This document shows, one piece after another, positions 5,832-43,585 of a DNA stretch of 64,000 nucleotides. Below the pieces are notes generated by a model that was given only the letters and a program-made list of their open reading frames with translations, ran no database searches and was not told where the DNA came from. Origin of the DNA: Phycisphaerae bacterium. GTDB taxonomy: Bacteria; Planctomycetota; Phycisphaerae; UBA1845. The translations under genes were made by a program, and so were the position numbers. How positions within the stretch are numbered: position 1 is the stretch's first letter; every line of letters starts with the position of its first letter. The DNA lies in assembly GCA_024102815.1 (NCBI GenBank), contig JAGFJJ010000010.1, positions 62,001 to 126,000 of the forward strand. Direction: 5' to 3'.

Positions 5832-6189
5832 TGTACCTGTATCGACTTCCGCCCGACAATTCCCCAAAATCGGCCCGGACATGATCTTACGGTTACATGA
5901 CGATCGCAGGGGCCGAATTCCCCGCATAACGCAGAACGATGGCCGCAACCACTTATTGCCGGGAAAGCTGCCCAGGAAGTCGAATCCTGCACAGGGGCGA
6001 TCCCGCCAGGCCCACCGCTTGTTCTGGGAGCACGGTTCGGCGTACACTCCACGGCAGCGTTGTCATCGGTTCCGATGACCCAAGGAGCCTTTCCGCGAGG
6101 AACGAGATCGCGGGGATTCAGTCGGGTGGACCCACCCCTGAAACCCGCGAGGAACCGTCCGGACGGATCGGCCTCAAAGGTGGAGCATC
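5832..6189. other. Divergent intergenic region between pseudopilin and ygiQ
   Basis: This 358-base stretch separates two divergent starts and must hold both promoters. I see no clear -35/-10 pair, tRNA or riboswitch. The only clear signal is the AAAGGTGGAG ribosome site just before ygiQ. Confidence 0.4.
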
Positions 6190-8211: not shown

Positions 8212-8234
8212 GCACATTGGAGAGTTCTCTCGGC

Positions 8235-9173: not shown

Positions 9174-9195
9174 AGGTTATGCCCGCCGTTCTGAA

Positions 9196-9624: not shown

Positions 9625-9777
9625 GAGATGGTGCCTCCGGGCGGAGGCCGCGACGGACGTCCGCCGATTTGGTGGAACTATTGTACCACGCAAGCCCACC
9701 AGGGTGAAGTGGTGCGGCGTCAATATCGGACGCGGACCGCTCTTGCCGGGCGGGGCCGGGCTGGAGAACATCCGGCC

Positions 9778-10413: not shown

Positions 10414-10466
10414 GAATCAAACCTCACTCAGCGATTACCGCTGAGTTTCGAGCTCTTCACGTTCGA

Positions 10467-13067
10467 TCAACCGCCACTGGCCAGCGCGGTGAGGCCGTCG
10501 ATCGACGCCGTCAGGAACCCGAACACGAAGTCCGGATTGTGGACACCCATGCTGCCGTCGTTGTTGGCAAGGTTGTAGTTCCAGCCGGCCTTGACCAGGC
10601 GCTCGTCGGCGAACATGTAGATGTCGCCGAGGTCGGTGTCGGCGTCATCGATAACCTTCACGCTGTTGAGGCCGACCGGGCCGATGACCGTGTCGTCCGC
10701 CAGCGTGAACGTCAGCGCCTGGCGCCCGCTTCCCTCGCCAAACGACAGGCTGGCGATGTCGGCAATGCTGTCGATGACCGTGGTCGTTCCGCCACTGCTG
10801 ATGCTGATGCGGTTGCCGGCGGCAATCTGCGCCGCGAACAGATCGGAGAAGGCGGCCTCGATAAGGCCCTTGAGCATCTCGGATCTCGTGGCGTATGCGT
10901 CCTGCAGCGCGTCAGGATCGATCATCTCACCGTGGCACTCAGCGCAGATGCCGGTGCTGGCGAAGAAGGTGTGGTTCGTACCGCCGAGGTTGTACGACAG
11001 CAGATCCGGCGGCGGCGTCTGCCGCATGTGGCAGTTCACGCAGGTGTCCTCGACGAAGGAGTGAGGCCCGCGCACACCGACCGTGACCTGGTAGGCATTC
11101 TGACCCATGAGGATGTCGGCCTGGGCGGAGCCGTGCGGGGCACGCGTCGCCTCGGCCGTGCCGAAGTCCGCAGTGAAGTTCGAATCGTTCTTGAGTCCGC
11201 GGCGCGTGTTGTGGCAGGTTACGCAGATGGCACCCTTACCCGCGCCCAGGACGGTGAAGCCGGCAATCAGCGGCGGCGAGTCGCCCTCGATGTACACGTT
11301 AGCGTTGTTGTTGTCTCCGCTGACCGTCCCAACCATGTGCGGATCGTGGCAGGTCACGCAGGTCTGCGGATGCGTTTCGTCGGCCGTCCAGGTGACTTCT
11401 ACATCCGCGAGAGGATCGGTGGCGGGATCGTTATCGAGCAGAACCGGCAGCCAGGCGAGGAAGCCATTCGCCGAGTGGCAGCGTGCGCAACTGCCGTTCG
11501 TGCCTTCCTCCGCCGCCAGCTCGTAGTTGGCGTGGCGGCTGAGCTGCCACTGCTGGAAGCGTCCGTGACGGAGCGGCTCTCCGTGGCAGGAACCGCAGAC
11601 GTCGGAAGCAAGACTTACGCGGGGCGCGCCCATCGTATGGGCACCGCCGGAATTCGGGCCGTGGCAATTCTCGCACTGGATGTTGCCGAACTGCATGGCA
11701 TTGGGGAAATCGGCCAGCGCCGTGGTCCAGTTGTCGGGGCTGGGATTGTTGATGAGCCCGGAGTCGAGGAACGCCTGATAGTCGTCCTGATCGTCCAGAC
11801 CGTTGTTGTCGGCCGTCGGATCAAACCCCACGCTGTGGCAGGCGAAGCAATTCGGACCCCAGTGATCGCCGGTATTGAGCTGATCGGTAAAGATCATCGC
11901 GTGACCGGTCTCGCGCCAAGGCGTAAACATGTCGGGCGCGATCGTGTCGTTGTGGCACACCGTGCAGTTGTCGGCGACCGGAAGCCCGTCGGCCCCCTCT
12001 CCCGTGACGGCACCAACCCACTCGCCGGCATAAATCTCGATCTCGACTTCCGCAGCCGGATCGACCGTCTCATCCGTAACGGTAAGGGTGTATACGCCGC
12101 TTCGGTCCGGTGTGAAATAGGGATTGCGCGTGGTGGCGTCGGTCAGCGCCGCGCCCGAACCGCTCGGACGGGCAAGCGACCAATCATACGTCTCTTGCTC
12201 CTTGCCTTGCAGAAGGACGGGAACACCGATCGGAACGTTGCGCAGGCCGGTCGTCCAGCCCCAGGGCAACTCCGCGTGAACCTGCAGCGAAGCGTTGTAG
12301 GTACCGGAAGACGTTCGCACGGCGACGCTCAAGTTCGAAAGGCCCGCCTCCTCCAATGAGAACGGGTTGATTCCCGCGACCTGGAAGCGGCTCGGCAGTC
12401 CACCCACGAACTCGCCTTCGGGCAAGGGAACGTTTGGAGGCAATTGGTCAGCACCGATCGGCGGCTCGGTCAACGCGGTGTAGAGACGGTCTTTGTAGGT
12501 TGCGAGAGCAGGAAGCTCGACGGAGGGCGTGCCCGAGTTGCCGCCATCGATGACTACGGCAACGCCTTCGCCCTGGGTCCAGGTGTAGCTCTGCAACGTC
12601 GAGCCGTCGAGGATCTCGACCGTGGCCCGCGCTGTAACCGTCTCTCCCGGTGCGGGATCGCCGTCAATGGAGGTTGTGACGATGACGTTGGCAGTCGGCG
12701 TGAGCGCCGCGTCGGCCGTGGTCACCAGACCGGGCAGGATCAGCACGGTACGCGAGACCGACTGGAATCGGCTGTCGGTAAACGTGATCTCATAAATGCC
12801 GTTGGGCAGCACCGCGGAGAATGTTCCGTTCGCCGCAGTGGTGATGTCGACGCCATCAACAGCGGGGTCGACGGCCACCGCCACCCCTTCGACGGCACTG
12901 TCCGTGAGGTCGTTGGTGACGGTACCGGACAGCGTTCCCGTTGCCCCACCGCCGCCACCGCCGGGTATGACCGGACAGCCGGTTACGAAGGCCAGACTCA
13001 ACACGCCGACCAACGCCGCGACGCCTTGCAGGCGTCTGGCACCGAAGGTAGCTCTTTGCGTCATCAT
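10467..13067 (-). CDS. Nine-haem c-type cytochrome lipoprotein
   Basis: The 866-residue protein begins with a lipoprotein signal: basic residues, LVGVLSLAFVTGC with the lipobox VTGC, then a Gly-rich linker, so it is a membrane-anchored, probably outer-membrane or periplasmic, lipoprotein. Residues about 43-115 look like a carboxypeptidase-regulatory/Ig-like beta domain, followed by further beta-rich sequence. Residues about 366-712 hold nine CxxCH haem sites (CTVCH, CFACH, CENCH, CGSCH, CARCH, CVTCH twice, CVNCH, CAECH), with extra His residues as possible distal ligands. The last 150 residues carry no haem. Role inferred: electron storage or transfer to extracellular or periplasmic acceptors. 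GGAGG lies upstream of the start. Confidence 0.9.
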   Translation of the reverse strand: MMTQRATFGARRLQGVAALVGVLSLAFVTGCPVIPGGGGGGATGTLSGTVTNDLTDSAVEGVAVAVDPAVDGVDITTAANGTFSAVLPNGIYEITFTDSRFQSVSRTVLILPGLVTTADAALTPTANVIVTTSIDGDPAPGETVTARATVEILDGSTLQSYTWTQGEGVAVVIDGGNSGTPSVELPALATYKDRLYTALTEPPIGADQLPPNVPLPEGEFVGGLPSRFQVAGINPFSLEEAGLSNLSVAVRTSSGTYNASLQVHAELPWGWTTGLRNVPIGVPVLLQGKEQETYDWSLARPSGSGAALTDATTRNPYFTPDRSGVYTLTVTDETVDPAAEVEIEIYAGEWVGAVTGEGADGLPVADNCTVCHNDTIAPDMFTPWRETGHAMIFTDQLNTGDHWGPNCFACHSVGFDPTADNNGLDDQDDYQAFLDSGLINNPSPDNWTTALADFPNAMQFGNIQCENCHGPNSGGAHTMGAPRVSLASDVCGSCHGEPLRHGRFQQWQLSRHANYELAAEEGTNGSCARCHSANGFLAWLPVLLDNDPATDPLADVEVTWTADETHPQTCVTCHDPHMVGTVSGDNNNANVYIEGDSPPLIAGFTVLGAGKGAICVTCHNTRRGLKNDSNFTADFGTAEATRAPHGSAQADILMGQNAYQVTVGVRGPHSFVEDTCVNCHMRQTPPPDLLSYNLGGTNHTFFASTGICAECHGEMIDPDALQDAYATRSEMLKGLIEAAFSDLFAAQIAAGNRISISSGGTTTVIDSIADIASLSFGEGSGRQALTFTLADDTVIGPVGLNSVKVIDDADTDLGDIYMFADERLVKAGWNYNLANNDGSMGVHNPDFVFGFLTASIDGLTALASGG

Positions 13068-13572
13068 CCCTGTTTACCTCCAGCAACGAGTCCGAACCCG
13101 CCGCCTTGATCAACCACGATTCGCCCTGGGGCTTTGTCGATCGCAAGCGGGTCTATGCATTCATCATCGGAATTCGCGTGGTTGCCTCTCGCACATTACC
13201 TGAGAGAAGCACCGCACGCACGAACATCCTCCCGTGATCTGAAGAACAAACCGCGGCAAAGCCCTGCCCTGAACCTGAGACCCCCGCTTGTCAGGGTGGG
13301 CTGCTTCATACCCGCGCACTGCGCGGCCCAACATAACGCCGCGCCGCGTTAAGCTGCCGCCAACCCAAGACCTTACGACCGACGAGTACCCGCGCCAAGC
13401 GAGAAGGCCGCAATGTATCAGGAAGTCAACCAGCCCAAGTATCACCCGGCAAGTTCAGTGCCAGAAACGGCCAAAACGACTTTCGATTTGGGTGAGGATT
13501 CCAATTCGGTTATCTCCGGCGAGAATCGGCATATTCTGCGCTGAAGAGATATCACAGGGTCTAGTGACAGGG
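13068..13572. other. Intergenic region, no gene recognised
   Basis: This 505-base stretch lies between the start of the nine-haem cytochrome gene and the end of truD. Short open frames exist on both strands but none has a ribosome site plus plausible protein content. It should hold the cytochrome promoter; I cannot point to a convincing one. Confidence 0.4.
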
Positions 13573-14826
13573 TTAGTCTGCGTCTTCGGACTTGCACAAC
13601 TCACGTGTCACGACGGTGGCATAGGCACCAGGGGGAAGTTCAAAGCGAACCTGAACATACGGTCCCCGATCATCGCTACCAGTGTTGGATTGCACGTTTT
13701 TCATTGGAACGCGTAATGGCCGACGAGCGCCGTCCATGGAATCACCCGGCGGCGGATGGCGCATCTGCTCCACATCCAATCCCGCCTCGGACAGTACGGC
13801 TGATTCCATCTCACCGGCTTTGCCCTCGGTCGGGGTCATTCGCTTTCCGAAGAGAGGACCGGTCGGGGAGATCTCCAGCGCCACACAGCGGGGCTGTTCC
13901 TGCGCAGGATCGATCACGCGGAAGCAGGCGCCGTTGGCGTGCTTCCAGGCCATGTCGCCGGCTTCCAACCGATCCAACTCGAAAATGCGCTGAGCGAGTA
14001 CGCGATTGAACAACGCGCTTTGCAGCGCCGACAGAAACAGGCGGCGAAGGTTCGCGGGAATGGACTTCCATGCGCCGCGGTAGTCTCCTGCGCGACGAAC
14101 CAGCGTCCGGCAGATGCGAATCTGGTCCCGAAAGGCATTGGGCCAGGTGCGTGCGGCGCTGTCGAAATCACCGGCATCGTAGAGCTCGCGGGCAACTCGG
14201 ACGTCGCCGCGATCCTCCGGACCGGGACGGCCGACAACCCAGCCGATCGCTTCCGCAAGATCCCCGATGATCGCGGCGCGCCCGATCAGCGCGTTGTCCC
14301 CGCGCGCGCCGAAACGCTGGGCGCCGAAGTAATTGGGAACACCTCGCCGGGTCAGCTCGGAGAGAATCGCCTGCGCGCTCGCATCGGCTTCGCTTTGCGA
14401 GCCCGCGAATTCGCGAACGCGCAGGTCAAACCGATTGCCAGACAGGTGACCGAGTTTCAGCTTGTTCGTGTGCCGCGCGACATCGAGAACGCGGAGCCGA
14501 TCCCAGCCGAGCTTCCGCACACGGTCGGGATCGATGTGTTCCAGACTGAGCTGCTGGCGGGTAACGCCGTGCGCATCTTTGAGCCCCGCGTAACCGATCT
14601 CTCGCGGATGGCGTCCCAGGGCCCTGGCGATGCGCTCGATGGCCGCGGGCGTGGTCATTCCCCCTTTCTCGATCGTGAAATAGACGTGTGTGCCCTCGCC
14701 CGATGCCAGGTAGAGCGGAATTTCCTCCACGAGAAAATCCTCGTTGAAGCGCTTGGTTCGCCCTCCAATGCCGGGCAACTCGGCGGTGAGGAAAGGCAAT
14801 TCGTTTTCGTCGTACGTCAGTTTCAT
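13573..14826 (-). CDS. truD: tRNA pseudouridine(13) synthase TruD
   Basis: The 417-residue product carries the TruD signature GYAGLKDAHGVTRQQLS; by analogy with the E. coli enzyme, the Asp of GLKD is the catalytic nucleophile. It also has FLVEEIPLYLASGEGTH near the N-terminus, NYFGAQRFG at the start of the TruD-specific insertion, and FNRVLAQR. Family members convert U13 of tRNA-Glu to pseudouridine in the cytoplasm. The ATG at 14826 is preferred over an in-frame TTG 12 codons upstream because the family normally starts close to this point. Length is slightly above the usual 350, owing to the C-terminal half. It is divergent from waaA across about 100 bases. Confidence 0.92.
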   Translation of the reverse strand: MKLTYDENELPFLTAELPGIGGRTKRFNEDFLVEEIPLYLASGEGTHVYFTIEKGGMTTPAAIERIARALGRHPREIGYAGLKDAHGVTRQQLSLEHIDPDRVRKLGWDRLRVLDVARHTNKLKLGHLSGNRFDLRVREFAGSQSEADASAQAILSELTRRGVPNYFGAQRFGARGDNALIGRAAIIGDLAEAIGWVVGRPGPEDRGDVRVARELYDAGDFDSAARTWPNAFRDQIRICRTLVRRAGDYRGAWKSIPANLRRLFLSALQSALFNRVLAQRIFELDRLEAGDMAWKHANGACFRVIDPAQEQPRCVALEISPTGPLFGKRMTPTEGKAGEMESAVLSEAGLDVEQMRHPPPGDSMDGARRPLRVPMKNVQSNTGSDDRGPYVQVRFELPPGAYATVVTRELCKSEDAD

Positions 14827-14929
14827 GGTGTTGAGTGTACGTCGTGATTCGCCGGTTACCAATCGTCGGCCATGTCCGGACAGCGGGCCGTCATTGGAGC
14901 GAGGCCGCGGGTGATATAGGATATTCCCC

Positions 14930-16360
14930 GTGATGCGCTATCTTGCGGATGTCGCGTACGCTCTGGCCGGTGCGGCCTATCTCCCCAAGGCGTTGTATGA
15001 CGCGCTGGTCGTGGGTAAGAACCGGCGCGGCTGGGGGCAGCGTCTCGGCGGGTTTCCGCAACTGGACGGTCGACGGCGCCTCTGGATTCACGGTGTCTCC
15101 CTGGGCGAGATCAACGCCACGCCACGGCTGGTAAGTGCGCTCCAGCAACGCCTTCCGGATTTCGATACGATCGTAACGTCCACGACGGACACGGGCTTCG
15201 CCCGCGCCGTCGAGCACTTCGGCCCGGACCGCGTGTTTCGATTTCCGCTCGACTTCAGCGCGGTGATTGTTCAGGCGCTGAAGCGACTCCGTCCGAGCCT
15301 GATCGTCCTCGTCGAATTGGAAGTCTGGTACAACCTGGTCCGTCAGGCAACAGGGCGCGGGGTCCCTGTCGCGGTGGTCAACGGCCGACTCACGGAGCGA
15401 AGCGCTCGACGCCTCGCCCGGCTGGGCACTCCCGTGCGACGGATGTTTGCCGATCTAGCGTGGATCGGGGCGCAGGATGAGACGATTGCGGAGCGGTTTC
15501 GCCGGCTCGGAGCGCGCCCCGAACGTGTTACGGTGACTTCTTCGCTGAAATGGGATACGGCTCCCCTGGATCAGGCCGTGGAGGGCGTAGAACCACTCGC
15601 CCGTGCGCTGGGAATCGTGACCTCTCGTCCCGTCTGGGTGTGCGGCAGCACCGGACCGTCGGAGGAGGAGATCGTCCTTTCAGCTTACCGGCTTCTGCTG
15701 GACCGCTGGGCCGAATTGGCACGGCGCGTGCAAGACGATTCACGAGGGGAGGCGGATCGCGCCGCGCAGCCTCCCTGCCTGGTGATCGTGCCGCGCAAAC
15801 CGGAGCGATTTGAAGAGGTCGCCCGCCTTATTGTGCGGAGAGGCTTCGAATGTACGCAGCGCAGCGCGCACCGTGACGGCAGCCAAGCTCCTCCGGAGTC
15901 CCATCGTCGGGTGATCCTCGGCGACACGATGGGCGAACTGCGGAAGTTCTATGCGCTGGCCGATGTCGTATTTGTCGGACGCAGCCTGGTTCCGCTGGGC
16001 GGTTCGGACCCGATGGAGGTTGCGGCGCTCGCCCGGCCAATGCTGTCCGGCCCGTTCATGAACAACTTCGAGACGCCGGCCCGGGCACTGGAAGGTGCGG
16101 GTGCTCTTCGCACCATTCAGGATGCTGAGACACTGGCCGGCGCCGTCGGAGCGATGCTCGCAGATCGCCATGGGAGCCGACGACTGGGTGAGCGGGCCCG
16201 GGAAGTCGTACGAAGCCATCGGGGTGCGACGGCGCGGACCGTCGACGCATTGTTGCGGCTGATTGATGGAATCAAACCTGCCCGGGCGGGTGCGGAAGCC
16301 TCGGGCGAACATGATCGGATGCAAGTCGAAACGACCACTTTTTCCCAGGAGCGAACATGA
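14930..16360 (+). CDS. waaA: 3-deoxy-D-manno-octulosonic acid (Kdo) transferase
   Basis: This 476-residue GT-B glycosyltransferase matches WaaA/KdtA. It has [13 protein letters not shown] and [11 protein letters not shown] in the N-terminal domain, [11 protein letters not shown], and [21 protein letters not shown] in the C-terminal donor domain. The family adds Kdo to lipid A precursor at the inner membrane, so the cell is expected to make LPS. An N-terminal hydrophobic stretch fits membrane association. GTG (14930) and ATG (14933) are adjacent possible starts, with AGGAT upstream. Its stop overlaps the acs start in an ATGA, so the two are probably translationally coupled, an unusual partner pairing. 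Confidence 0.93.
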
Positions 16361-18351
16361 TGTCTGGCACCACGACCGCGGAGACCGGGACGAATCGCCC
16401 GGCCGTTTTCGATCCACCGGCAAACGTCTCGTCCAAGGCTTACGTCAAGTCGCTGGATGATTACCGCCGCATGTACGATCGGTCCATCAAGGACCCGGAG
16501 GGGTTCTGGACGGAGTTTGCCAACCAGTTCCACTGGCAACAGAAGTGGACCAAGTTCCGCGAGTTCGACTTCAAGAACGATATCTCCGTCAATTATTTCA
16601 TCGGCGGGAAGACGAACGTGTGCTTCAACGCGCTCGACCGGCACCTCGACAAGCGCGGCGACCAGGTCGCTATCCTCTGGGAGGGCAATGAACCCGGCGA
16701 GACGGCCAAGCTCACCTACCGCCAGCTGCACGCCGAGGTCTGCAAGTTTGCCAACGTGCTCAAGAAATTCGGAGTCAAGAAGGGCGACCGTGTGTCCATC
16801 TACATGCCGATGGTGAAGGAACTGGCCATCGCCATGCTGGCCTGCGCGCGTATCGGCGCCATTCACTCCATCGTATTCGGCGGGTTCAGCCCGGAATCGC
16901 TGGCTGACCGCATCGTCGATTCGACCTGCGAGATCATCGTCACGACGGACGGCGTCTTCCGCGGCTCCAAGGCCGTACCGCTCAAGGCCAACGCCGATGA
17001 GGCGATGAAGATCGCCGGGCGCCAGGGCGTGAACGTGCGCACGTGCATCGTGAGCGAGCGGGTCGGCTCCGCGAAGCTGAAAACCGAGATGCAGTCCGGG
17101 CGCGATTACTGGTGGCACGAGGTGATGAAGGACGCACCGGCAAAGTGTGATCCGGAGTGGATGGACTCGGAAGACCCGCTGTTCATCCTGTACACCTCGG
17201 GTTCCACGGGCAAGCCCAAGGGCGTGCTGCACACCACCGGTGGGTACATGGTCTATACGACCACGACGTTCCGCTACATCTTCGACTACCACGACGGCGA
17301 CATCTTCTGGTGCACGGCCGACATCGGCTGGGTCACGGGACACTCGTACATCGTGTACGGCCCGCTTTGCGCCGGGGCCACCACGCTGATGTTCGAGGGC
17401 ATTCCCACGTATCCGGATGCCGGACGCTTCTGGGATGTCGTCGACCGTTACAAGGTGACGCAGTTCTACACGGCGCCGACTGCGATCCGCGCTTTGATGC
17501 GCGAGGGCGAGTCGTGGGTCCAGAAGCACAATCTCTCGTCGCTGCGCATCCTGGGTTCGGTGGGCGAGCCGATCAACCCGGAGGCATGGCTCTGGTATCA
17601 CCGCAATGTTGGACACGGAAAGTGCCCCATTGTGGACACCTGGTGGCAGACGGAGACGGGCGGCATTCTCATCACGCCGCTGCCCGGTGCGACGCCGCTC
17701 AAGCCTGGTTCGGCCACGCTGCCCTTCTTCGGCGTTCGACCTGTCATGCTCACCCCCGAAGGCAAGCGGATCAACGGTCCCGGCTCCGGCGTGCTATGCA
17801 TCGAAGAGCCCTGGCCGGGCATCATGCGGACGGTTTACGGTCAGCATCAGCGTTTCAAAGAGACGTACTTCAGCACGTATCCCGGCCTCTATTTCACCGG
17901 CGATGGTTGCCGTCACGACGAAGACGGCTACTGGTGGATCACGGGCCGTGTTGACGACGTGATCAACGTCTCGGGTCACCGCATGGGCACGGCCGAGGTG
18001 GAAAGCGCCCTCGTCGCCCACCACGCCGTGGCTGAAGCCGCCGTCGTGGGATTCCCGCACGAGATCAAGGGTCAGGGCATCTACGCGTACGTGACCTTGA
18101 AGCAGGGGCAGGAATACACGGATGCACTGAAGAAGGAACTGGTGCAGCACGTGCGCAAGGAGATCGGCCCGATCGCTGCGCCGGATGTCATTCACTGGGC
18201 TCCGGGACTTCCCAAGACGCGCTCGGGCAAGATCATGCGGCGCATCCTGCGTAAGATCGCGGAAGGACAGCCCGAGCAGGTGGGGGATACATCGACACTG
18301 GCCGACCCCGGCGTGGTGAAGAACCTCGTCGATACCTACAAGAAGGCGTGA
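16357..18351 (+). CDS. acs: Acetyl-CoA synthetase (AMP-forming)
   Basis: The 664-residue enzyme has the adenylate-forming motifs [20 protein letters not shown], and the C-terminal [17 protein letters not shown]. In that last motif Lys625 is the catalytic lysine that family members regulate by acetylation. It makes acetyl-CoA from acetate, ATP and CoA in the cytoplasm. Length is normal. The start ATG overlaps the waaA stop by four bases (ATGA); a second ATG follows directly. A strong rho-independent terminator lies about 115 bases past the stop, so waaA-acs looks like a complete two-gene operon. Confidence 0.95.
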
Positions 18352-18467
18352 TCGAAGCCGTTGACCGGGTTGAAGGTCGATCAACCCGATAATCGGTTTT
18401 CAGACTTGGTGAACTGGGGGACAAAGGCCGTTCCCTGATTCGAGGTTTTGTTTCTCATTTTCGGCAA

Positions 18468-18504
18468 GCCCCCGGGGCCCTGCGGGTCTCGGGGGCGTTT
18501 TTTG
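18468..18504 (+). terminator. Rho-independent terminator after acs
   Basis: A GC-rich stem pairs GCCCCCGGGG with TCTCGGGGGC (one G-U pair) and is followed by GTTTTTTG. It ends the waaA-acs transcript. Confidence 0.85.
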
Positions 18505-18584
18505 TTGATGGCACGCCGTTTGCGATGCGGAAAGTATCTCTCTACCTCCGAGGGGAGGGTTTGCGCACATCACGGGAAGAATCC

Positions 18585-21584
18585 ATGAAATCCGTCATCC
18601 TGCTCGCCGTTTTTGCAGTGCTACCGGAACAGGTCGCACCCCTGGAGCATGTTGCTTCGCTTAATGAAATGTTGCGGAGCCCCGCACGAGTCGCCGTGTC
18701 GTCGGACGGTCAGGTCCTGGTAACTGACCCGTCGCGCCGGCAGATCGTACGATTCGATGCCCTCGGGAATCTGCTTGGTAGCTGGCCGGTGCCCGAGCGC
18801 CCGATCGGCCTCGCCGTGCACCCGGACGGTCGCTACTTCGTCTCCTATCGCGATGAGCCCGGCGTGGGGATCTACGATTCGACGTTCACTCGAATCGGTC
18901 TCCTGGGCGAAGGGCAGCCTCTCGTTGCCTTTACACGTCCGACGGACATCGATGTCGCTACGGACACCGGGAGAATCTATGTCGTCGATTCCGGCGCGGA
19001 TCGCATCTACGGCTTCGAAAGCACGGGCGGCCTGGCACTCATCTTCGGCACCCATGGCGAAGGATTGGGGCAGTTTCAATATCCCAGCGCTATCGCGGTG
19101 GATGAAGAACGCAGTCGTCTGCTCGTCGCGGACCAAGACAACTTCCGCGTCCAGGTGTTCTCGACGTCGGGCCTGCTCCTCGGGCGATTCGGGTTTCGCA
19201 ACAAGTACCTGCCCTCAGGCGGACAAGAGGGCTGGCTGCCTCGCACGCAGGGAATCGCCGTCGACGATCAAGGATACATCTACCTTGCCGACGCGCTGAT
19301 GAACACCGTGCGAATCTTCGCCCCCAATGGCATGGAACTGGGCAAAGTCATTGAGCACGGACAAGCGGCAGGTGCGGTGCGCACACCGTGCGATCTTGCA
19401 TTGAGCCCTGACGGCCAGCGGCTGTATGTCGCCAGCACGAATACTTCTACCGTTGAGATCTTCGCCACGCCCACGCTGCCGGCGCCACGAGGCATGAGTA
19501 TCGAGATTGTCGGCGACGGCCACACGGCAGGAACGAATGACTCGGCCCACGACACGGAATTCCGTCGGACCAAGGAAGCACGGGGCGTGACGAAAGAGAA
19601 AGGGCTGCGGCCCTCTCACGCTGAACCATCTCATGTTGATTCGCTCGCCGACTCCGGGCATACGCCAATCGCTGGATTCGCGGTCCTGTCAAGCTACGAA
19701 GGTCCACACATGATCAACGCAACGGTGATCTGCGGGCGGTGCCACGGGATCGCCGGTCAACCCGGCGGTAACCCCGCGACGCTCGAAGGGCAGATTACAC
19801 TTTGCATGTCCTGTCACAGCAGCGGTGGCCAGGCGATGAGCACACCGCTCAATGCGGCGGATATTATCCACGGGAACGATGGCCCCGGGCGTTCGCATCC
19901 CTGGGGAGTTCCCGCCGTAAACGAAGATTTCGGCTCGACCGGACCCCATGCAGGCGGCGACATGGCGGCCTACCTCGCCTCCGGCGGCCTCATCAAGTGC
20001 GGCACATGCCACGACCAGCACAGCAATGATGCTGGTTCGCCGTATCTGCGGGTCCGCAACACCCGCGGCTCCATGTGCAAGGAGTGCCACACGGGGAGGA
20101 GCGATCACACCCCTGACAGCGCATGGCAACCGAACTGCAATGAATGTCACGCGCCGCACGATTCCTCAAGCTACAATCTGTCGTTGATCGCAACGTCCGT
20201 GGAGAACAGGACGCTGGACATGATGATGCCCGTCGTGTTCACGGCTCGTACGGGTCCCGGAAGCTTCGACGACGGGAATCCCGCCAGCAACGACGGCATC
20301 TGTCAGGTATGCCACACGGCCACCGCCTATCATCGATATGACGGATCATCGGCCGGGCACCACGGAGGTTCCGACTGCACCGCCTGTCACCCGCATGAAG
20401 ACGGCTTCCTGGCAACCGGGGGCGCTTGCGATGCCTGTCACGGCGCTCCGCCGGCAACGGGGGCCCACCTGGCGCACTTCGGCGGAACGGCCGAAGACGC
20501 CAATTACGGTGGCGTCGAGAATCTCTCGCTCCCCGCGTCGCACGTATTTCAATGTGGCAACTGCCACCCACACGCGTCATCGCGGCATCTCAACGGCACC
20601 GTTGAGATTGAACTGTATTATCCTGGAGCCCCGCCCGACAGTCTGAAGGGGCGCAACCCGGCTACAGCGGAATATACGCCGGGGCCCGTTGCGCACACGG
20701 ATGTCAACGGCATCCCCTACTCGTTGGGCTCATGTTCAAATGTCTACTGCCACAGCCAAACCGTCTGGTCGTCGCCCACGCCGATTTCCGCGCCGCTGGT
20801 CGATTCCGGAACGGGATTTCCAATCCTGGATGCAAACGGCAACCTGACCTACGACCCGTATTCCGTAACAGAATCGAGGGATTACGCCGTCGTAAGCTGG
20901 GGAGACTCCGCACTGGGCTGTAATGCCTGCCATCGAAACAACCCTCAGACTTCATTCCCGGATGTTCGAGCGGGCGTGGGAAATTCGCACGGCTGGATCG
21001 ACGACTTCGGCTACGAGGATCTCCACGCATGGAATATGGGGTTCGATCCGCTGACGTGCCGGGTATGTCACTTTGCCACGGTTCAGGACGAGATGACCTG
21101 GGTGCGCGATGCGCAGGATATCACGCATTTCGACGATGCGCCGATTGCCGATAGATCCATTCACGTGAACGGCGCCATTGAAGTCGTTTTCGATCCTGTA
21201 AACCCCGTGGTCTATCCGGCGACGGGCCGCACATATGAGTACAATCTGGCCACTGCTGCATACGATCCTTCGAGCAAGACCTGCTCTAACGTCGGTTGCC
21301 ACCTGAATCAGGCCGCCCCGGAATGGGGCAAGCCCTATCGGTGGTGGGATCCGTTCGAGTGCGACCAATGTCATCAGTACGGCGGACCCTGGCCGCGGGG
21401 TTCGTCGGAGATCGTTCTCGAACAACCGACCATGCATTTTGATCCGATTGAGTTGGAGAAGTCCGCCTCATCGGGCGATCCGGCAATCTGTACGCGCTGC
21501 CACCAGGGACATACCCTCCGTCGCGATCAAGACCCAGCACCCGTGCGGAAGGAAACGCGCTCAACGCTGCGTGACGAGCGATAG
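18585..21584 (+). CDS. NHL beta-propeller fused to 15-haem cytochrome c (CxxCH plus CX4CH type)
   Basis: The 999-residue protein starts with a signal peptide (MKSVILLAVFAVLPEQV). Residues about 30-310 form an NHL-type six-bladed propeller with repeats such as RPTDIDVATDTGRIYVVDSG and RTQGIAVDDQGYIYLADALM. From 383 to 973 there are 13 CxxCH sites and two CX4CH sites: CSNVYCH (717) and CSNVGCH (900). The CX4CH...CxxCH arrangement matches the domain family first described in Geobacter outer cytochromes. It is expected to be periplasmic or surface exposed and to move electrons; the propeller may dock a partner. I chose the ATG at 18585 with GGGAAG upstream rather than the ATG 20 codons earlier because the signal peptide begins there. 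Confidence 0.9.
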   Translation: MKSVILLAVFAVLPEQVAPLEHVASLNEMLRSPARVAVSSDGQVLVTDPSRRQIVRFDALGNLLGSWPVPERPIGLAVHPDGRYFVSYRDEPGVGIYDSTFTRIGLLGEGQPLVAFTRPTDIDVATDTGRIYVVDSGADRIYGFESTGGLALIFGTHGEGLGQFQYPSAIAVDEERSRLLVADQDNFRVQVFSTSGLLLGRFGFRNKYLPSGGQEGWLPRTQGIAVDDQGYIYLADALMNTVRIFAPNGMELGKVIEHGQAAGAVRTPCDLALSPDGQRLYVASTNTSTVEIFATPTLPAPRGMSIEIVGDGHTAGTNDSAHDTEFRRTKEARGVTKEKGLRPSHAEPSHVDSLADSGHTPIAGFAVLSSYEGPHMINATVICGRCHGIAGQPGGNPATLEGQITLCMSCHSSGGQAMSTPLNAADIIHGNDGPGRSHPWGVPAVNEDFGSTGPHAGGDMAAYLASGGLIKCGTCHDQHSNDAGSPYLRVRNTRGSMCKECHTGRSDHTPDSAWQPNCNECHAPHDSSSYNLSLIATSVENRTLDMMMPVVFTARTGPGSFDDGNPASNDGICQVCHTATAYHRYDGSSAGHHGGSDCTACHPHEDGFLATGGACDACHGAPPATGAHLAHFGGTAEDANYGGVENLSLPASHVFQCGNCHPHASSRHLNGTVEIELYYPGAPPDSLKGRNPATAEYTPGPVAHTDVNGIPYSLGSCSNVYCHSQTVWSSPTPISAPLVDSGTGFPILDANGNLTYDPYSVTESRDYAVVSWGDSALGCNACHRNNPQTSFPDVRAGVGNSHGWIDDFGYEDLHAWNMGFDPLTCRVCHFATVQDEMTWVRDAQDITHFDDAPIADRSIHVNGAIEVVFDPVNPVVYPATGRTYEYNLATAAYDPSSKTCSNVGCHLNQAAPEWGKPYRWWDPFECDQCHQYGGPWPRGSSEIVLEQPTMHFDPIELEKSASSGDPAICTRCHQGHTLRRDQDPAPVRKETRSTLRDER

Positions 21585-23595: not shown

Positions 23596-24849
23596 TCAAC
23601 GGGCGGAAGCGCCATCGGCTCCGTTCGGAAACCGCATCTCTCCCTCGTGGCAATCCGTACACACGGGGGGCCGGTCGTAGCGACCATCTTGGTGGCAGGT
23701 GCTGCAATCAATCTCGGCGTGATTCTCGTCAAGAACCTGCCCCGTGATGGCATGGTCGAACGCGCCGGCATCCCAGGGCTCGTGACAGGCCGAGCACTCT
23801 TTTGAAGGCGCCTCAAACGGAACGTCCGCGTGGCAACTGCGGCACGGCACGCCGGCGTGGTAGGATTTCAACGGCCAACCCGCAACGGTGGCGTGGTCAA
23901 ACAAGCCGCGCAGAGGAGTACCGTCAGGAATGTGGCATTTCTCGCAGCGCCCGGCCGACCGTCCCGCAAGACTCATGTCGTCGCGATGGCATCGCACACA
24001 GGGCGCGTGGTGCTCCACCAGGGTCGAATTCCGGCGCGCCTCGTCACTACGGCTGTGGCAGCGCGCGCAGCTCGACTCCCGATGGCAATCCACGCAGCGA
24101 AGACCGAATCGATCCGCATGCTCTCCGTGTCGGAACAGCACGCGTCCCGACGCTTCCCGATTCGCCGACCCTTCATAGAATTCCCCGGCTGGTGAGGGGA
24201 TGGGTGGATGCATCCGTCCGAGTATCTCTCCGGGGCCGGGTGCCGCCGCCACACGGCTCCCTGCCTTGCGCCGATGGCAGAGTTCGCACGCGCGTTCATC
24301 GCTCCATTCCCGATGACAAGCCAGGCATTGTTGGTGATAGGCGCCGCGCAGCCCCGGAAGATCGACGCTCGTACCGGATGCGGCAGGATCATGGCAGGCT
24401 CGACATGGGGGAGGTGGCTGACCCGCTGATGAATGGTGGTGGCACGTCGCGCACCCGTCGCCCATCTCCGCCTTTTCCGCATGACCACGGTGGTCGAACG
24501 GAACGGGCAGGTAGGTGTTCTCCAGGACTCCCAGAACGATCACGTCACTGACCGCAGCGAGCTCCGCCGTCGGGACGAGATGCCGGGTGCAGGGATTCCG
24601 CAGACATGGGGCCGAATGCTTCGGCGTCTCGCAATAGTGGCAATTGCCACAGTTCGTTGCGTGTTCCTCTGGTTCCGCGACGCTTGTCTCGACGGGAACG
24701 GCGTCCACCTGCGTCTTGTCCTGCGCCAGTGTGGTCGCCGTAGCCGTCAACAAGATGGCCATCGTCGCCGCGAGGCGCAGACACGACCCGCGTGCTCCAC
24801 TCTCGGCTGCGCCGAACGGACCATTGCCCCCCAGAGCCTCAGGCGCCAT
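23596..24849 (-). CDS. Thirteen-haem c-type cytochrome
   Basis: The 417-residue protein has an N-terminal hydrophobic stretch (about 24-43, ending ATTLAQ) consistent with a Sec signal. It then carries 13 CxxCH sites from CGNCH at 67 to CTDCH near 400, spaced roughly every 20-30 residues with many unpaired His residues. This is the expected electron acceptor of the Fe-S/NrfD complex encoded just upstream. Its ATG overlaps the end of the NrfD-like gene by 11 bases, indicating translational coupling, and GGTGAG lies before it. It is the last gene of the minus-strand operon. Its haem density, about one per 32 residues, is that of a molecular wire-type cytochrome. Confidence 0.9.
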   Translation of the reverse strand: MAPEALGGNGPFGAAESGARGSCLRLAATMAILLTATATTLAQDKTQVDAVPVETSVAEPEEHATNCGNCHYCETPKHSAPCLRNPCTRHLVPTAELAAVSDVIVLGVLENTYLPVPFDHRGHAEKAEMGDGCATCHHHSSAGQPPPPCRACHDPAASGTSVDLPGLRGAYHQQCLACHREWSDERACELCHRRKAGSRVAAAPGPGEILGRMHPPIPSPAGEFYEGSANREASGRVLFRHGEHADRFGLRCVDCHRESSCARCHSRSDEARRNSTLVEHHAPCVRCHRDDMSLAGRSAGRCEKCHIPDGTPLRGLFDHATVAGWPLKSYHAGVPCRSCHADVPFEAPSKECSACHEPWDAGAFDHAITGQVLDENHAEIDCSTCHQDGRYDRPPVCTDCHEGEMRFPNGADGASAR

Positions 24850-26080
24850 GTCTCACCGCGCCTTTCTCAATCCTCCGTGGCGCATCCACCACGGAGCGCC
24901 CGCATTCCGGCACGAAATCGACGATCGCCAGATTCATTGCCAGGAAACGCCAGAGCACGATCAGGCCGGCGAGGACCCCGATCGTAAACCCCCACTCGGC
25001 AAGTGATGGAAAATATCGGTATGGCGCCATGAACGGACGGAACCCCAGCCAGTACACGTTGGTTCGATAGAGCACGACTCCGAACATGACCATCAGGCAT
25101 GCTGCGCCCAATGCACGGGGACTACGCAGCACGCGCGATGACATGAGCATGACGAGAGGAACAACGAGTCCGACGCCGACTTCCAGTCCGAAGGCAGCGG
25201 ACACCAACGAGAAATGGCGCAACTCGGCGAAGCTCCCACGAACCAGCAGATCGCCGATCTTAAATGCCAGATACACACCCAGGACAACGGGCAGATAGCT
25301 TGCGAGACGGCTCAGTTGTCGCATGGGCGGCCGCAGTCCCAGTGAAGTCGAGGACCAGAGACATACGAACATCACCGTGGGAATTGCCGCTACGACGGCT
25401 GACATCACGAACAGGAGGGAGAGAATGGGCGTCCACCAGAGCGGATGGAGCTTGGGACCGGCCAGCACCATGACGTGCCCCAGGGAGGATTGGTGCAGGC
25501 AGGAGATCGCAATGCCGAGTATCACCACGCCGATCATCACCGGCTCGAGCAGTTGATACAGAGACCCGCAGATAACGCCCAGCCAGGGATGGCGAACATC
25601 AAAACGAAAGCGCTCGCAGACCACCGGAACGAACTCGAGATACAGCACCGACAGATAGCACATCACGCACATGCCGACCTCGAACAGCGCCGAATTCCCC
25701 TGCCACATGCTCGGAAGAAGCGGATGCCAGATGTTGTAATAACGGCCGAGATCGGCCGCGAGTAGAATGCAGGCGCACGTGTAGCCCAGCAACGCCGTCA
25801 GGAGCGCGGGGCGAACGAGGAAGTGATAGTCCTGGCGATTCAGGACGTAGACAAGGCCCGCCGTAACGAACCCCCCGGCCGCCAGCGCGATGAATGAAAC
25901 GTCCGCGACGATCCAGATACCCCACGGATAGACCTGGTTCATGTTGGTGCTGGCCTGCAGGCCGAACGCAAAACGATAGATCCCGAAGGCCACGCCCAGT
26001 CCTGCCATGAGGAGCAGGATCGCCGTTCCCGGGGTAAGAAACTTAACGCGCGAGAATGTCGGCAGCGCACTGTGGCTCAT
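24839..26080 (-). CDS. HybB/NrfD-type quinone-reactive membrane subunit
   Basis: The 413-residue protein has nine to ten predicted membrane helices. The GIYRFAFGLQASTNMNQVYP and WGIWIVADVSFIALAAGGF region is diagnostic of the HybB branch of the NrfD/PsrC family. Such subunits exchange electrons with menaquinol and pair with a HybA/PsrB-like Fe-S protein; that protein is encoded directly upstream with a 38-base overlap. The start at 26080 (MSHSALPTFSRVKF) was chosen over an upstream frame extension of 32 codons that overlaps the Fe-S gene more deeply and is not membrane-like. The cytochrome gene follows with an 11-base overlap. The complex is therefore Fe-S + NrfD + cytochrome c, resembling Hmc, Qrc or Geobacter Cbc-type modules. 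Confidence 0.88.
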   Translation of the reverse strand: MSHSALPTFSRVKFLTPGTAILLLMAGLGVAFGIYRFAFGLQASTNMNQVYPWGIWIVADVSFIALAAGGFVTAGLVYVLNRQDYHFLVRPALLTALLGYTCACILLAADLGRYYNIWHPLLPSMWQGNSALFEVGMCVMCYLSVLYLEFVPVVCERFRFDVRHPWLGVICGSLYQLLEPVMIGVVILGIAISCLHQSSLGHVMVLAGPKLHPLWWTPILSLLFVMSAVVAAIPTVMFVCLWSSTSLGLRPPMRQLSRLASYLPVVLGVYLAFKIGDLLVRGSFAELRHFSLVSAAFGLEVGVGLVVPLVMLMSSRVLRSPRALGAACLMVMFGVVLYRTNVYWLGFRPFMAPYRYFPSLAEWGFTIGVLAGLIVLWRFLAMNLAIVDFVPECGRSVVDAPRRIEKGAVRHGA

Positions 26081-27077
26081 CGTGGGACTCCTCAAGTCTG
26101 GACACGTCACCATGCACGACCGCGATACGATCCCTGCCGACCTGGCCGTTGTCGCTCGAGGCGGAGTCGACACCAAACGGGATTTCGCGACGGCGCGTGA
26201 GCCATGCGGTCAGCCCCAGGATCGCGCACCACGCCACGGGAGGCATGAAGTGCTTGAACACGCCATGCTGGATCGACTCCGTCAGGCGGGGCCAGGAGCT
26301 TGCCGCGACCGGCGGAAACCCGAGCTGCTCGAACGGAACCGGACTCAAGTACAGCCAGGACGTTCCGCCCGCCTCGAACTCTCCGTAGACATGGTCCACG
26401 TACACGTCGGGCTGGCGGGCAACACGCTCATGTGCCTTGGCAATCAGTTCCTCGCGCCGGCCGTAAATGAGGCACTCTTTCGGACACGCCTGCACACACG
26501 CCGGAATCGTGCCCCCGTTCGCGTGATCCTCATCGAAACAGAATGTGCAACGACGGACGCGCGGGGTGAGCGGCCTGGCGTACTCGTAGGCGGGCATTTC
26601 GAATGGACACGCCACCATGCAGTAGCGACAGCCCATGCACTTCTGCGCGTCGTACGTCACGGGCCCGTCAGGCAGTTTCCGCAGAGCACCCACGAGGCAC
26701 GCGGATACACATGCCGGATCGACACAGTGCATGCAATTTTGCTTTACATACACGGCCGAAGTTCCGTCATCGTGGTTGAAGGTGCGTCTGTTGACGACGG
26801 TGAAGGAATCGGGACCGGGACGACGAGCTTGCTCGAACAGGGACTGGTCTTCCAGTTCCTCGGGATCAATCTCGGGAAGGCCGTTGGCTTTTGCGCAGGC
26901 CGCCTCGCAGCGCCGACAGCCGCTGCATCGGACCACGTCCACCAGCACTCCCATGGCCTGCGGTGCCGCCTCAATGTGCGAAGATGAATTCGCCCGCGCC
27001 GGTGAGGCGGCTACTGCAAGCCCCCCCGATCCAATCGCCACCGCCCTGCGAAGAAACGCTCGCCGATCAGGATCCAT
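26043..27077 (-). CDS. HybA-like four-cluster [4Fe-4S] protein with Tat signal and C-terminal anchor
   Basis: The 344-residue protein begins MDPDRRAFLRRAVAIGSG, a twin-arginine signal ending near ASPARA. Four cysteine groups bind Fe-S clusters: CSGCRRCEAAC, CMHCVDPACVSAC, CMGCRYCMVACPF and CTFC with CVQACPKE. A hydrophobic helix near residues 280-300 (PPVAWCAILGLTAWL) anchors the C-terminus, as in HybA. The protein should sit on the periplasmic face and relay electrons between the NrfD-like subunit and the cytochrome. The ATG at 27077 is chosen because it opens the Tat signal. It starts 70 bases after the AcfC-DsrE gene and overlaps the NrfD-like gene by 38 bases. Confidence 0.9.
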   Translation of the reverse strand: MDPDRRAFLRRAVAIGSGGLAVAASPARANSSSHIEAAPQAMGVLVDVVRCSGCRRCEAACAKANGLPEIDPEELEDQSLFEQARRPGPDSFTVVNRRTFNHDDGTSAVYVKQNCMHCVDPACVSACLVGALRKLPDGPVTYDAQKCMGCRYCMVACPFEMPAYEYARPLTPRVRRCTFCFDEDHANGGTIPACVQACPKECLIYGRREELIAKAHERVARQPDVYVDHVYGEFEAGGTSWLYLSPVPFEQLGFPPVAASSWPRLTESIQHGVFKHFMPPVAWCAILGLTAWLTRRREIPFGVDSASSDNGQVGRDRIAVVHGDVSRLEESHDEPQCAADILAR

Positions 27078-27147
27078 GGGAAACACAGCCTTTCTTGCGT
27101 CATCGATCTTGCCATGCTCCGGTGAGCGAATTGAACTGCTCGCCGGA

Positions 27148-28356
27148 CTAGAACCCGACGTAGGCGTAGCCCTGTCCCTGAAGATCGATGATTCTCGGGT
27201 AGGCCGAGGCAATGGCTTTCACACCCGGTATCAGGTCCGCCTTGCTCAAGCCCAGCTTTTCCAGCGACTTGCCGCACACCTCGATCTGCACGCCCATATC
27301 CAGGAGTTCGCGGACTGCCGAACCGTCGGGATTGGCACCGGGAGTCTTGGTCGCCTTGGCGTAACCGGCGTCGCTGAGCAGTCGCCTCACGGAATCGCCG
27401 TCGAACACGGCGGTCAGATGCACCTCGGACGGCGGAACGCCGATTGCCTCGTATTCCTTGAGCAACTCGCGAATCCGCAACAGGCCGTTCGGCTGTCCGT
27501 CGTTGCCGTCGTTCCCGTCAACCCGGCAGACGGCGCAGATGTCGCGCCTCACGACCAGCGGAGACCCTTCCTCTCCGGGGCTCATCCAACCCCACGATGT
27601 GAAGATCTCCTGCCCTTCCGGGGAGGTGAGGAAGTTGATGAACTCCCGCGCCACCGGCTTCTCCGCCCCACGCTGCGTTAACGCAACGCTGCAATGCCGG
27701 TAGACTCGGTAGTCCGCGCTCACCGGGATCAGCTTGGCCTCGTCCCGCAGGGGCATGTACCAGATGTTCCAGGTGATCCAAGCGTCGAGATCGCGGTGCT
27801 GCCGCCACAGCTTCATGGCGTCATCGCTCGTTTCCGCGGAAACCGAGATATTGGCCCGTAGCTCACGCAGCGCGCGGACATCCGCGAAGCGGCCGGCCAT
27901 GTCTTCCCACAGAGCGGTCTGGCCCGATCCCTCGACCACCATGATCCTGAGCCCGGGTTGCAGGAGGTCGGGAAAGTCGCGGATGCCCCGCGGATTATCG
28001 GGCCGAACAAGAATGACGGACGGACGCATGTACAGCGGTGTTACCGAGGCCGGGTCGATCTTCAGGCTCTCCGTCCGCTCGAAACGGGTCATCATGTACC
28101 CGGCACTGGCATAAATCAGGTCAGCATCGTCGCCGGCCTTGGCGATCCAGGAATCCACCGGTCCCGAGTGAACGTCAATGGTAATCTGATGACGCGCCCC
28201 GAACGCCGTCGCCGCGTCGTGAATCGCCGGCGAAGGCCCCGAAGGGCCGTAGAGTTTCATCGACTCCGGCGGATCACCGCGCAACGCGGGAGTCAGGGCG
28301 AACGTGATGACCGCAAAGGTAAGGCAGTGCGTACGGCAAGCGTAACGAGGGAACAT
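27148..28356 (-). CDS. AcfC-like solute-binding domain fused to a DsrE-like domain
   Basis: The 402-residue protein has a signal peptide (MFPRYACRTHCLTFAVITFALTPALRG). Residues about 30-260 match the AcfC/ABC periplasmic-binding family (LYGPSGPSPAIHDAA, IYASAGYMMTRF, VTPLYMRPSVILVRPDNP, WITWNIWY, REFINFLTSPEGQEIF). A CAVC motif near 284 links to residues about 295-402, which resemble the DsrE/DsrF fold (VHLTAVFDGDSVRRLLSDAG, VCGKSLEKLGL, DLIPGVKAIA, QGQGYAYVGF), including the single Cys that DsrE-type proteins use for sulfur. It is the first gene of the Fe-S/NrfD/13-haem operon. It may bind an oxyanion or sulfur compound in the periplasm; the substrate is unknown. Start: ATG preceded by GGGAGAT. 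Confidence 0.82.
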   Translation of the reverse strand: MFPRYACRTHCLTFAVITFALTPALRGDPPESMKLYGPSGPSPAIHDAATAFGARHQITIDVHSGPVDSWIAKAGDDADLIYASAGYMMTRFERTESLKIDPASVTPLYMRPSVILVRPDNPRGIRDFPDLLQPGLRIMVVEGSGQTALWEDMAGRFADVRALRELRANISVSAETSDDAMKLWRQHRDLDAWITWNIWYMPLRDEAKLIPVSADYRVYRHCSVALTQRGAEKPVAREFINFLTSPEGQEIFTSWGWMSPGEEGSPLVVRRDICAVCRVDGNDGNDGQPNGLLRIRELLKEYEAIGVPPSEVHLTAVFDGDSVRRLLSDAGYAKATKTPGANPDGSAVRELLDMGVQIEVCGKSLEKLGLSKADLIPGVKAIASAYPRIIDLQGQGYAYVGF

Positions 28357-28434
28357 GAGTGTATCTCCCAACATCGGCGGGCAAACCAGGACGCATCACA
28401 CCGCAGCGGAATCGCTCCGCCCCATCAACGTCCG

Positions 28435-43288: not shown

Positions 43289-43320
43289 TCCTGGGCAGAA
43301 TAGCACGCGAATCAGCCACG

Positions 43321-43565: not shown

Positions 43566-43585
43566 GTCACGTCAAGGACGACGTG

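What the first reader, a model, noticed from the sequence alone, without database searches (positions are those of the whole stretch)
18585..21584. 15-haem cytochrome with an NHL propeller and two CX4CH haem sites
A propeller fused to 13 CxxCH and two CX4CH motifs in one exported protein is rare. CX4CH...CxxCH domains are known chiefly from Geobacter-type extracellular electron transfer. The gene is preceded by a clean terminator and followed by a ClC channel on the same strand. It hints that this planctomycete may do long-range electron transfer.
Basis: partly seen in the sequence, partly recalled or inferred. Interest (0 to 1): 0.52.

Follow-up and report, generated by a model that had tools for sequence, protein, structure and literature searches.

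The report
Propeller-fused 15-haem planctomycete electron-transfer protein
This planctomycete gene makes an exported protein that joins a propeller-shaped docking domain to a chain of up to 15 haems, and its close relatives sit beside genes for carrying electrons through the outer membrane, so it is probably part of a machine for exchanging electrons with the outside world.

Summary
Window 18585-21584(+) encodes 999 aa: a short leader, an NHL propeller (residues 26-300) and a cytochrome region with 13 CXXCH and 2 CX4CH. It is not a one-off. In the same planctomycete family NHL-multihaem fusions with 8 to 30 CXXCH are common, and 13 of 21 class genomes with a cytochrome-region match carry one within 25 kb of a conserved operon: MtrA-like 13-haem, tetrahaem homologous to the OmcE filament (PDB 7TFS, E 2.6e-22), two NHL lipoproteins, 5-haem lipoprotein, putative outer-membrane barrel, undecahaem. 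The window's genome has this operon on another contig, with an NHL-cytochrome paralogue nearby. The window protein is an apparently relocated member of a largely conduit-linked clade. Its CX4CH half is 60% identical to one Hydrogenedentota protein and was found in no other of 382 planctomycete genomes, so it is a mosaic. Most likely function: a periplasmic or surface electron carrier of an undecahaem/porin extracellular-electron-transfer route; location and direction of flow are open. The operon, not the CX4CH motifs, is what supports electron transfer to the outside. New variant of a known kind.

The parts
18468..18496 (+). terminator-like hairpin after acs, separating the gene from its upstream neighbour
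   Evidence: 13 pairs, 11 G-C, loop 3, tail GTTTTTTGTT
18585..21584 (+). NHL-15-haem cytochrome gene, 999 aa plus stop
18585..18638 (+). putative short signal peptide (residues 1-18), no lipobox
   Evidence: sequence by eye; N-termini of relatives align; no signal-peptide predictor was run
18660..19484 (+). NHL beta-propeller, residues 26-300
   Evidence: PF01436 74.2 bits; pLDDT about 80 over most of 30-296, 23 strands; best matches are NHL domains (6xg7, TRIM2, TRIM71), E 4e-22
19704..20291 (+). N-terminal part of the cytochrome region, residues 374-569, 5 CXXCH; lies in the family-type module (residues 374-676)
   Evidence: matches of up to 60% identity in same-family genomes
20292..21509 (+). 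mosaic C-terminal cytochrome half, residues 570-975, 8 CXXCH + 2 CX4CH, TIGR01904-type
   Evidence: over cut-off; 60.3% identical (223/370) to L002 over 570-945; for rarity
20733..20753 (+). CX4CH site 1, CSNVYCH
   Evidence: conserved in L002
21282..21302 (+). CX4CH site 2, CSNVGCH
   Evidence: CSSVPCH in L002
23596..24849 (-). 13-CXXCH class III-type cytochrome, HmcA-like in part; convergent neighbour
   Evidence: HmcA model 63.6 bits (cut-off 400)
24839..26176 (-). NrfD-type membrane subunit
   Evidence: PF03916 60.8 bits (cut-off 25.8)
26043..27212 (-). 4Fe-4S protein, HmcB-like; the three genes look like a quinone-linked inner-membrane electron-transfer complex
   Evidence: HmcB 315.3 bits (cut-off 420); paralogous set on contig C5
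10467..13067 (-). second multihaem cytochrome of the window, 9 CXXCH, possible lipoprotein

Best explanation
The gene encodes an exported electron-carrier protein of a porin-cytochrome extracellular-electron-transfer route in a planctomycete. Shown: the domain anatomy, the family, the same-genome operon and the linkage of relatives. Inferred: (1) electrons pass between the quinone pool and the periplasm through Hmc-like NrfD/FeS/multihaem complexes, one of which is the window's convergent neighbour; (2) an MtrA-like 13-haem protein and a lipoprotein barrel carry them across the outer membrane to an undecahaem protein and an OmcE-type tetrahaem that may polymerise; (3) the NHL propeller docks the 15-haem chain on a partner, perhaps the NHL lipoproteins or the undecahaem protein, and the haem chain carries or stores electrons there. 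The protein has no recognised anchor, so it is soluble in the periplasm or held at the surface by its propeller. The C-terminal CX4CH half was gained by exchange between phyla and would extend the haem chain.
For: The closest full-length relative, L002 (Hydrogenedentota), lies directly behind the operon 4-haem, NHL, 5-haem, barrel, NHL, 11-haem. The same six genes in the same order are on contig C76 of the window's genome: pairwise 40, 38, 36, 23, 40 and 46% identity, E 4e-20 to 4e-161. The tetrahaem matches 7TFS at E 2.6e-22 (profile 4.6e-39), and its four CXXCH plus four further His (43, 66, 141, 191) are invariant in 13 rows; 7TFS is OmcE (PMC12954529, passages). The undecahaem N-terminus has the same domain (E 3e-32). 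13-haem protein: DmsE/MtrA-type model, 136.6 bits, below its cut-off of 192.2. Barrel: alternating hydrophobicity (autocorrelation -0.15, +0.12, -0.12, z -4.0, +3.3, -3.2) and a terminal Phe in 8 of 10 rows. Linkage: 13 of 21 genomes (read; gene calls in 48, 60). Co-occurrence within family f1: close form of the operon in 18 of 18 genomes with a cytochrome-region hit against 3 of 11 without, Fisher p 4e-5. Tree: window in a supported clade of 8 (95/95), 4 of whose other 7 members are conduit-linked. In L090 the fusion gene overlaps an NHL gene of the operon by 4 bases. In L003 an NHL gene overlaps a separate 15-CXXCH gene by 4 bases, the unfused form of such a pair. Cytochrome c assembly genes are present.
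Against: The window copy itself is not in the operon; its neighbours are acs, a ClC channel and the Hmc-like set. 8 of 21 genomes show no linkage, several on short contigs. The Fisher tests are not corrected for kinship. No haem binding, localisation, expression or phenotype is known. The structure of the cytochrome half could not be predicted (pLDDT about 20), nor that of the barrel (29). No peptidylprolyl isomerase or trihaem genes of the Uet type were seen in the operon.
Confidence: 0.64

Rival explanations
1. A periplasmic electron buffer or shuttle of ordinary respiration that serves the convergent Hmc-like complex or the terminal oxidases, unconnected with the outer membrane.
For: No anchor or lipobox; the gene lies 2 kb from an Hmc-like set; the window copy is away from the conduit locus, and 8 of 21 genomes show no linkage.
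Against: Clade relatives sit beside the outer-membrane operon; NHL proteins are a feature of published outer-membrane cytochrome clusters (PMC10734462, PMC9769857, passages).
Confidence: 0.22
2. A catalytic multihaem enzyme of the nitrogen cycle, for example hydrazine-synthase-like (propeller plus haems) or of nitrite/hydroxylamine type.
For: Hydrazine-synthase-like genes are reported in Phycisphaerae MAGs (PMC10732223, passages); a very weak NCBIfam match to hydrazine synthase beta (11.1 bits, 30 residues); one conduit-linked relative matches UshA-like and Cyt554 models in part.
Against: No solved hydrazine synthase or nitrite reductase was listed by sequence at E 0.01 for the whole protein or at E 10 for the cytochrome part; the propeller's best fold matches are NHL binding domains.
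Confidence: 0.06
3. A structural or adhesive surface protein whose haems are incidental, or a redox sensor for the two-component and sigma-54 regulators.
For: NHL domains are mostly binding modules (recalled); a histidine kinase and a sigma-54 regulator flank the operon on C76.
Against: All ten haem sites of the shared half and nine further His are conserved between phyla, which points to selection for haem ligation; no sensor output domain was found.
Confidence: 0.08

Closest known systems
TIGR01904 / PF09698 CxxxxCH/CxxCH domain cytochromes (named from Geobacter sulfurreducens)
   Same: Two CX4CH...CXXCH modules; TIGR01904 over its cut-off.
   Different: Joined to an NHL propeller and a family-type cytochrome module; PF09698 under its gathering score.
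Uet (undecahaem electron transfer) complex of Tenderiales and Gallionella (PMC10734462, passages read; original paper PMC9599434 not held)
   Same: Undecahaem, tetrahaem, porin and two NHL proteins in one cluster; the C76 operon has the same kinds of part.
   Different: No peptidylprolyl isomerase or trihaem genes seen; NHL-multihaem fusions present; sequences not compared with Uet, which were not available.
Desulfovibrio ferrophilus outer-membrane cytochrome clusters with DFE_0451 and DFE_0463 NHL proteins (PMC9769857, one passage read)
   Different: NHL proteins are separate genes there as far as the passage says; not compared by sequence.
OmcE cytochrome filament, PDB 7TFS
   Same: The operon's tetrahaem and the undecahaem N-terminus are homologous.
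   Different: The window protein itself did not match it; filament formation is untested.
Mtr/Mto/Pio conduits
   Same: The operon's 13-haem protein resembles the DmsE/MtrA-type model below cut-off.
   Different: No MtrB/PioB match in the genome.

Membership tests
TIGR01904 CxxxxCH/CxxCH domain cytochrome | score over the NCBIfam cut-off | tested here: met
   36.5 bits, cut-off 27
PF09698 GSu_C4xC__C2xCH | score over the Pfam gathering score | tested here: not met
   19.8 bits, gathering 21.7
NHL repeat proteins (PF01436) | NHL repeats over cut-off and a beta-propeller fold | tested here: met
   74.2 bits, cut-off 20; model and fold search
c-type cytochrome | covalently bound haem at the CXXCH and CX4CH sites | not testable with these tools
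   motifs only; Cytochrom_C_asm genes are in the genome
Uet-type porin-cytochrome complex (operon on C76, not the window protein) | undecahaem + tetrahaem + two NHL proteins in one cluster | tested here: met
Uet-type porin-cytochrome complex (operon on C76) | peptidylprolyl isomerase and trihaem cytochromes | tested here: not met
   none among the ten proteins of L031 scanned or the three; no trihaem frame in the L031 gene list
Uet-type porin-cytochrome complex (operon on C76) | sequence homology to the Uet proteins of Ca. Tenderia electrophaga | not tested
Outer-membrane beta-barrel (693-aa protein) | barrel fold | tested here: inconclusive
   alternation and C-terminal Phe for it; OMP_b-brl in L002 17.4 bits, under cut-off 28.7; single-sequence model useless; strand-count test did not differ from shuffles (36 against 33.8)
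OmcE filament cytochrome (4-haem protein) | homology and conserved haem ligands | tested here: met
   E 2.6e-22; four CXXCH and four further His invariant
OmcE filament cytochrome (4-haem protein) | polymerises into a filament | not testable with these tools
   needs microscopy
Mtr/Pio conduit | MtrB/PioB porin PF11854 | tested here: not met
   0 matches at E 1 in the genome
Hydrazine synthase | sequence match to solved hydrazine synthase subunits | tested here: not met
   none listed; model match 11.1 bits, cut-off 560
Hmc complex (window 23596-27212) | HmcA and HmcB equivalog scores | tested here: not met
   HmcB 315.3 of 420, HmcA 63.6 of 400: Hmc-like, not Hmc

The most novel reading that the evidence does not exclude
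One planctomycete family has evolved its own extracellular electron-transfer architecture: an undecahaem/OmcE-type porin conduit whose outer partner is a variable, propeller-tethered haem chain (8 to 30 CXXCH in one polypeptide), lengthened by swapping cytochrome modules between phyla, so that a single-chain protein wire takes over part of the job of a polymer nanowire.
Probability: 0.27. Interest if true: 0.76.

Novelty: new variant of a known kind. Interest (0 to 1): 0.56.

Why it matters
It gives a testable set of genes for extracellular electron transfer in a planctomycete lineage; the authors of PMC10732223 (2023) called theirs, to their knowledge, the first report of iron- and manganese-cycling potential in non-anammox Planctomycetota. 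It also shows that NHL proteins, known as separate members of such clusters, occur fused to long haem chains. That makes an open question directly testable: what the NHL proteins do in these conduits. The fusion says that propeller and haem chain have to sit together.

Tried and rejected
Rejected: that the CX4CH motifs are chance, that the fusion is unique, that it is a hydrazine-synthase-like enzyme, that an MtrB-type porin serves it. Led nowhere: AlphaFold of the L002 barrel from one sequence (pLDDT 29) and of the cytochrome half with a two-row alignment (pLDDT about 20); profile of the barrel against the PDB (one hit, E 0.057, a designed protein); counting amphipathic segments of the barrel (36 against 33.8 in shuffles, no signal), after which I tried autocorrelation; promoter scan (0 found, 2.0 expected); RuBisCO as a hint of electron uptake (none). 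The internal repeat of the two CX4CH modules is modest (score 56 against shuffles 30.0, sd 5.2, highest 51). The TIGR01904 hit in G376 lies in a 67-aa frame and was set aside; one search found the model over cut-off in 2 of 298 class genomes, G376 being one. Limits of counts: the genome search scored only part of its first-look candidates in several genomes (at most 4 per genome, 5), so misses are possible and counts are lower bounds; genomes are a sample of class or phylum. The 13-of-21 linkage was counted by reading. The gene regions fetched were chosen partly because hits shared a contig, so the gene tables are not a random sample.

Literature: ten searches listed no paper whose title or abstract start describes an NHL-multihaem fusion; 'NHL repeat' with 'CXXCH' gave one paper. 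Most subscription papers are not held. Papers seen as passages: PMC10734462, PMC5566968, PMC9769857, PMC10376724, PMC9473688, PMC12954529, PMC5371394, PMC13264449; term searches without hits in PMC11475568, PMC12977616, PMC7399161; PMC10732223 passages and sections 10-11. All others in search listings only.
Full report
WHAT IS THERE. Window 18585-21584(+) is an open frame of 999 codons with 13 CXXCH and two CX4CH. It starts with a short hydrophobic leader (by eye), followed by an NHL propeller at residues 26-300 and haem sites from residue 383 to 973. NHL, Cytochrome_C7 and TIGR01904 models score over their cut-offs, PF09698 just under. A two-row AlphaFold model gives the propeller with fair confidence (23 strands) and nothing for the cytochrome half; the propeller's best matches among solved structures are NHL domains. 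A terminator-like hairpin separates it from the acetyl-CoA-synthetase-like gene upstream (gene named from recall), and a ClC channel follows.

SURROUNDINGS. Convergent to it, at 23596-27212(-), lie a 13-CXXCH cytochrome, an NrfD-type membrane protein and a 4Fe-4S protein that resemble the Hmc complex without reaching its equivalog cut-offs, preceded by a substrate-binding-protein/DsrE fusion at 27148-28374. A parallel set, 44-53% identical, lies on contig C5 with 11-haem and 19-haem cytochromes. A 9-CXXCH protein lies at 10467-13067(-).

THE GENOME. The window is G000:C10:62001-126000 of a 5.09-Mb, 79-contig assembly, 95% complete and 3.7% contaminated. The phylum is Planctomycetota: G301, called 'same phylum', holds a 93,096-base contig that gave a match identical to the one in RFGR01000014.1, a Planctomycetota MAG contig of the same length. 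On contig C76 lies an operon read as 13-haem (+1 CX4CH), 4-haem, NHL lipoprotein, 5-haem lipoprotein, 693-aa lipoprotein barrel, NHL protein, 11-haem, with gaps of 2 to 347 bases, and a sigma-54 regulator and a histidine kinase upstream. About 7 kb beyond the 13-haem gene is a paralogue of the window protein: NHL, dockerin-like stretch, 9 CXXCH. A second, more distant set of 11-haem, 4-haem-like, NHL and barrel genes is on contig C7. There are 16 Cytochrome_C7 matches in the genome, two Cytochrom_C_asm matches, no MtrB/PioB match and no RuBisCO match.

WHAT THE OPERON IS. The 4-haem protein is a homologue of PDB 7TFS (E 2.6e-22 alone, 4.6e-39 as a profile of 13 rows), which a review identifies as the OmcE filament of Geobacter (PMC12954529, passages). 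Its four CXXCH and four further histidines are invariant. The N-terminal 200 residues of the 11-haem protein are the same domain (E 3e-32). The 13-haem protein scores 136.6 bits on the DmsE/MtrA-type model (cut-off 192.2). The 693-aa protein shows the alternating hydrophobicity of a barrel, its family ends in Phe in 8 of 10 rows and has a nearly invariant Gly-Cys near the end of the leader. A strand-count test showed nothing and structure prediction of L002's version failed, so the barrel remains an inference. The parts are those listed for the Uet complex of Tenderiales and Gallionella (undecahaem, tetrahaem, porin, NHL; PMC10734462, passages), minus its isomerase and trihaem proteins.

RELATIVES AND LINKAGE. 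The best relative in genome contigs, L002 of a Candidatus Hydrogenedentota MAG, is a full NHL-cytochrome fusion placed behind the same six-gene operon, with one 5-CXXCH gene between. In the class sample 21 of 298 genomes have a match to the cytochrome region at E 1e-8 and 77 of 298 to the 11-haem protein at E 1e-20; all 21 are among the 77. In the window's family, 18 of 18 genomes with a cytochrome-region match have the close form of the operon's 11-haem gene against 3 of 11 without (Fisher p 4e-5, not corrected for kinship). In 13 of the 21 a cytochrome-region match lies within 25 kb of an 11-haem or 4-haem match on the same contig. Gene calls on these contigs show NHL-multihaem fusions with 8 to 30 CXXCH, mostly beside a 5-haem gene. 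In G522 the fusion overlaps an NHL gene of the operon by four bases. In a more distant planctomycete (L003) a separate NHL gene overlaps a 15-CXXCH gene by four bases. In G123, outside the class, an Ig-NHL-11-haem protein is 4 kb from a homologue of the 13-haem protein.

TREE AND MOSAIC. In a tree of 25 fusion NHL domains plus two outgroups the window falls in a supported clade of 8 (95/95). Of its other 7 members 4 (G599, G440, G617, G626 C17) are conduit-linked; the other 3 lie on short contigs or at a contig end. The simplest reading is that the window copy moved away from the conduit locus. Its C-terminal half (residues 570-945) is 60.3% identical to L002, against 28.3% in the propeller and 25.1% in residues 374-569. 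No other of 382 planctomycete genomes matches residues 640-999 at E 1e-6, and of 68 Hydrogenedentota genomes one matches in full and one weakly. So this CX4CH half was probably exchanged between phyla, from a source not found. Its GC3 (0.675) is within the range of the rest of the gene (0.62 to 0.76) and below acs and ClC (0.84, 0.79), but another gene of the window is as low (0.687), so composition does not settle it.

HOW IT MOST LIKELY WORKS. All ten motif histidines of the half from residue 570 on, CX4CH included, and nine further His (583 to 860) are conserved with L002, as expected if the haems have two His ligands; this is inference. Haem attachment at CX4CH is known from class III cytochromes (recalled). 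The propeller would hold the haem chain on a partner. Whether electrons flow out (metal or electrode reduction) or in (Fe(II) oxidation) is open; the lack of RuBisCO speaks weakly against autotrophic uptake by that cycle.

WHAT IS KNOWN. NHL proteins beside outer-membrane or secreted cytochromes are published for Uet (PMC10734462), Desulfovibrio ferrophilus (PMC9769857) and Dethiobacter (PMC10376724), where a role in assembling complexes was proposed (passages). Iron-reduction potential was reported for 4 of 29 Planctomycetota MAGs of one study (PMC10732223, section 11), and NrfD-type gene clusters with multihaem proteins there too (section 10). Ten searches gave no paper on the fusion (call numbers in Tried and rejected). 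Verdict: the protein is real and belongs to a conduit-linked family; it is a new variant of a known kind, of moderate interest.

Noticed in passing
window 27148-28374 (-): A protein joining a ModA-like substrate-binding domain (PF13531) to a DsrE domain (PF02635), overlapping the start of the Hmc-like FeS gene; role unknown.
   Followed up: partly
window 10467-13067 (-): 9-CXXCH protein with a PKD-like region and a likely lipobox, distantly similar (23% over 454 aa) to the C-terminal part of the C76 NHL-cytochrome paralogue.
   Followed up: partly
L002 8132-11191: The Hydrogenedentota fusion has, between propeller and cytochrome, a dockerin domain, a membrane-anchor-like stretch and what looks like a second signal peptide in one frame, as if two genes had lost the stop between them.
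   Followed up: partly
L102 860-6139: NHL-cytochrome of 1759 aa with 30 CXXCH in one chain, conduit-linked.
   Followed up: no
L032 (G000:C5:56000-75999) 5284-14150: Second Hmc-like set flanked by 11-haem and 19-haem cytochromes that are 30% identical to each other.
   Followed up: no
L101 (G000:C7:50000-69999) 14204-20000: Second, diverged undecahaem conduit locus in the same genome.
   Followed up: partly
L031 9790-10971: 393-aa protein without Pfam or NCBIfam match, overlapping the 13-haem gene by 4 bases and conserved next to it in relatives (33-39% identity).
   Followed up: no
window 41777-48407 (+): Two flagellin genes and a FliD-type cap gene in a row.
   Followed up: no
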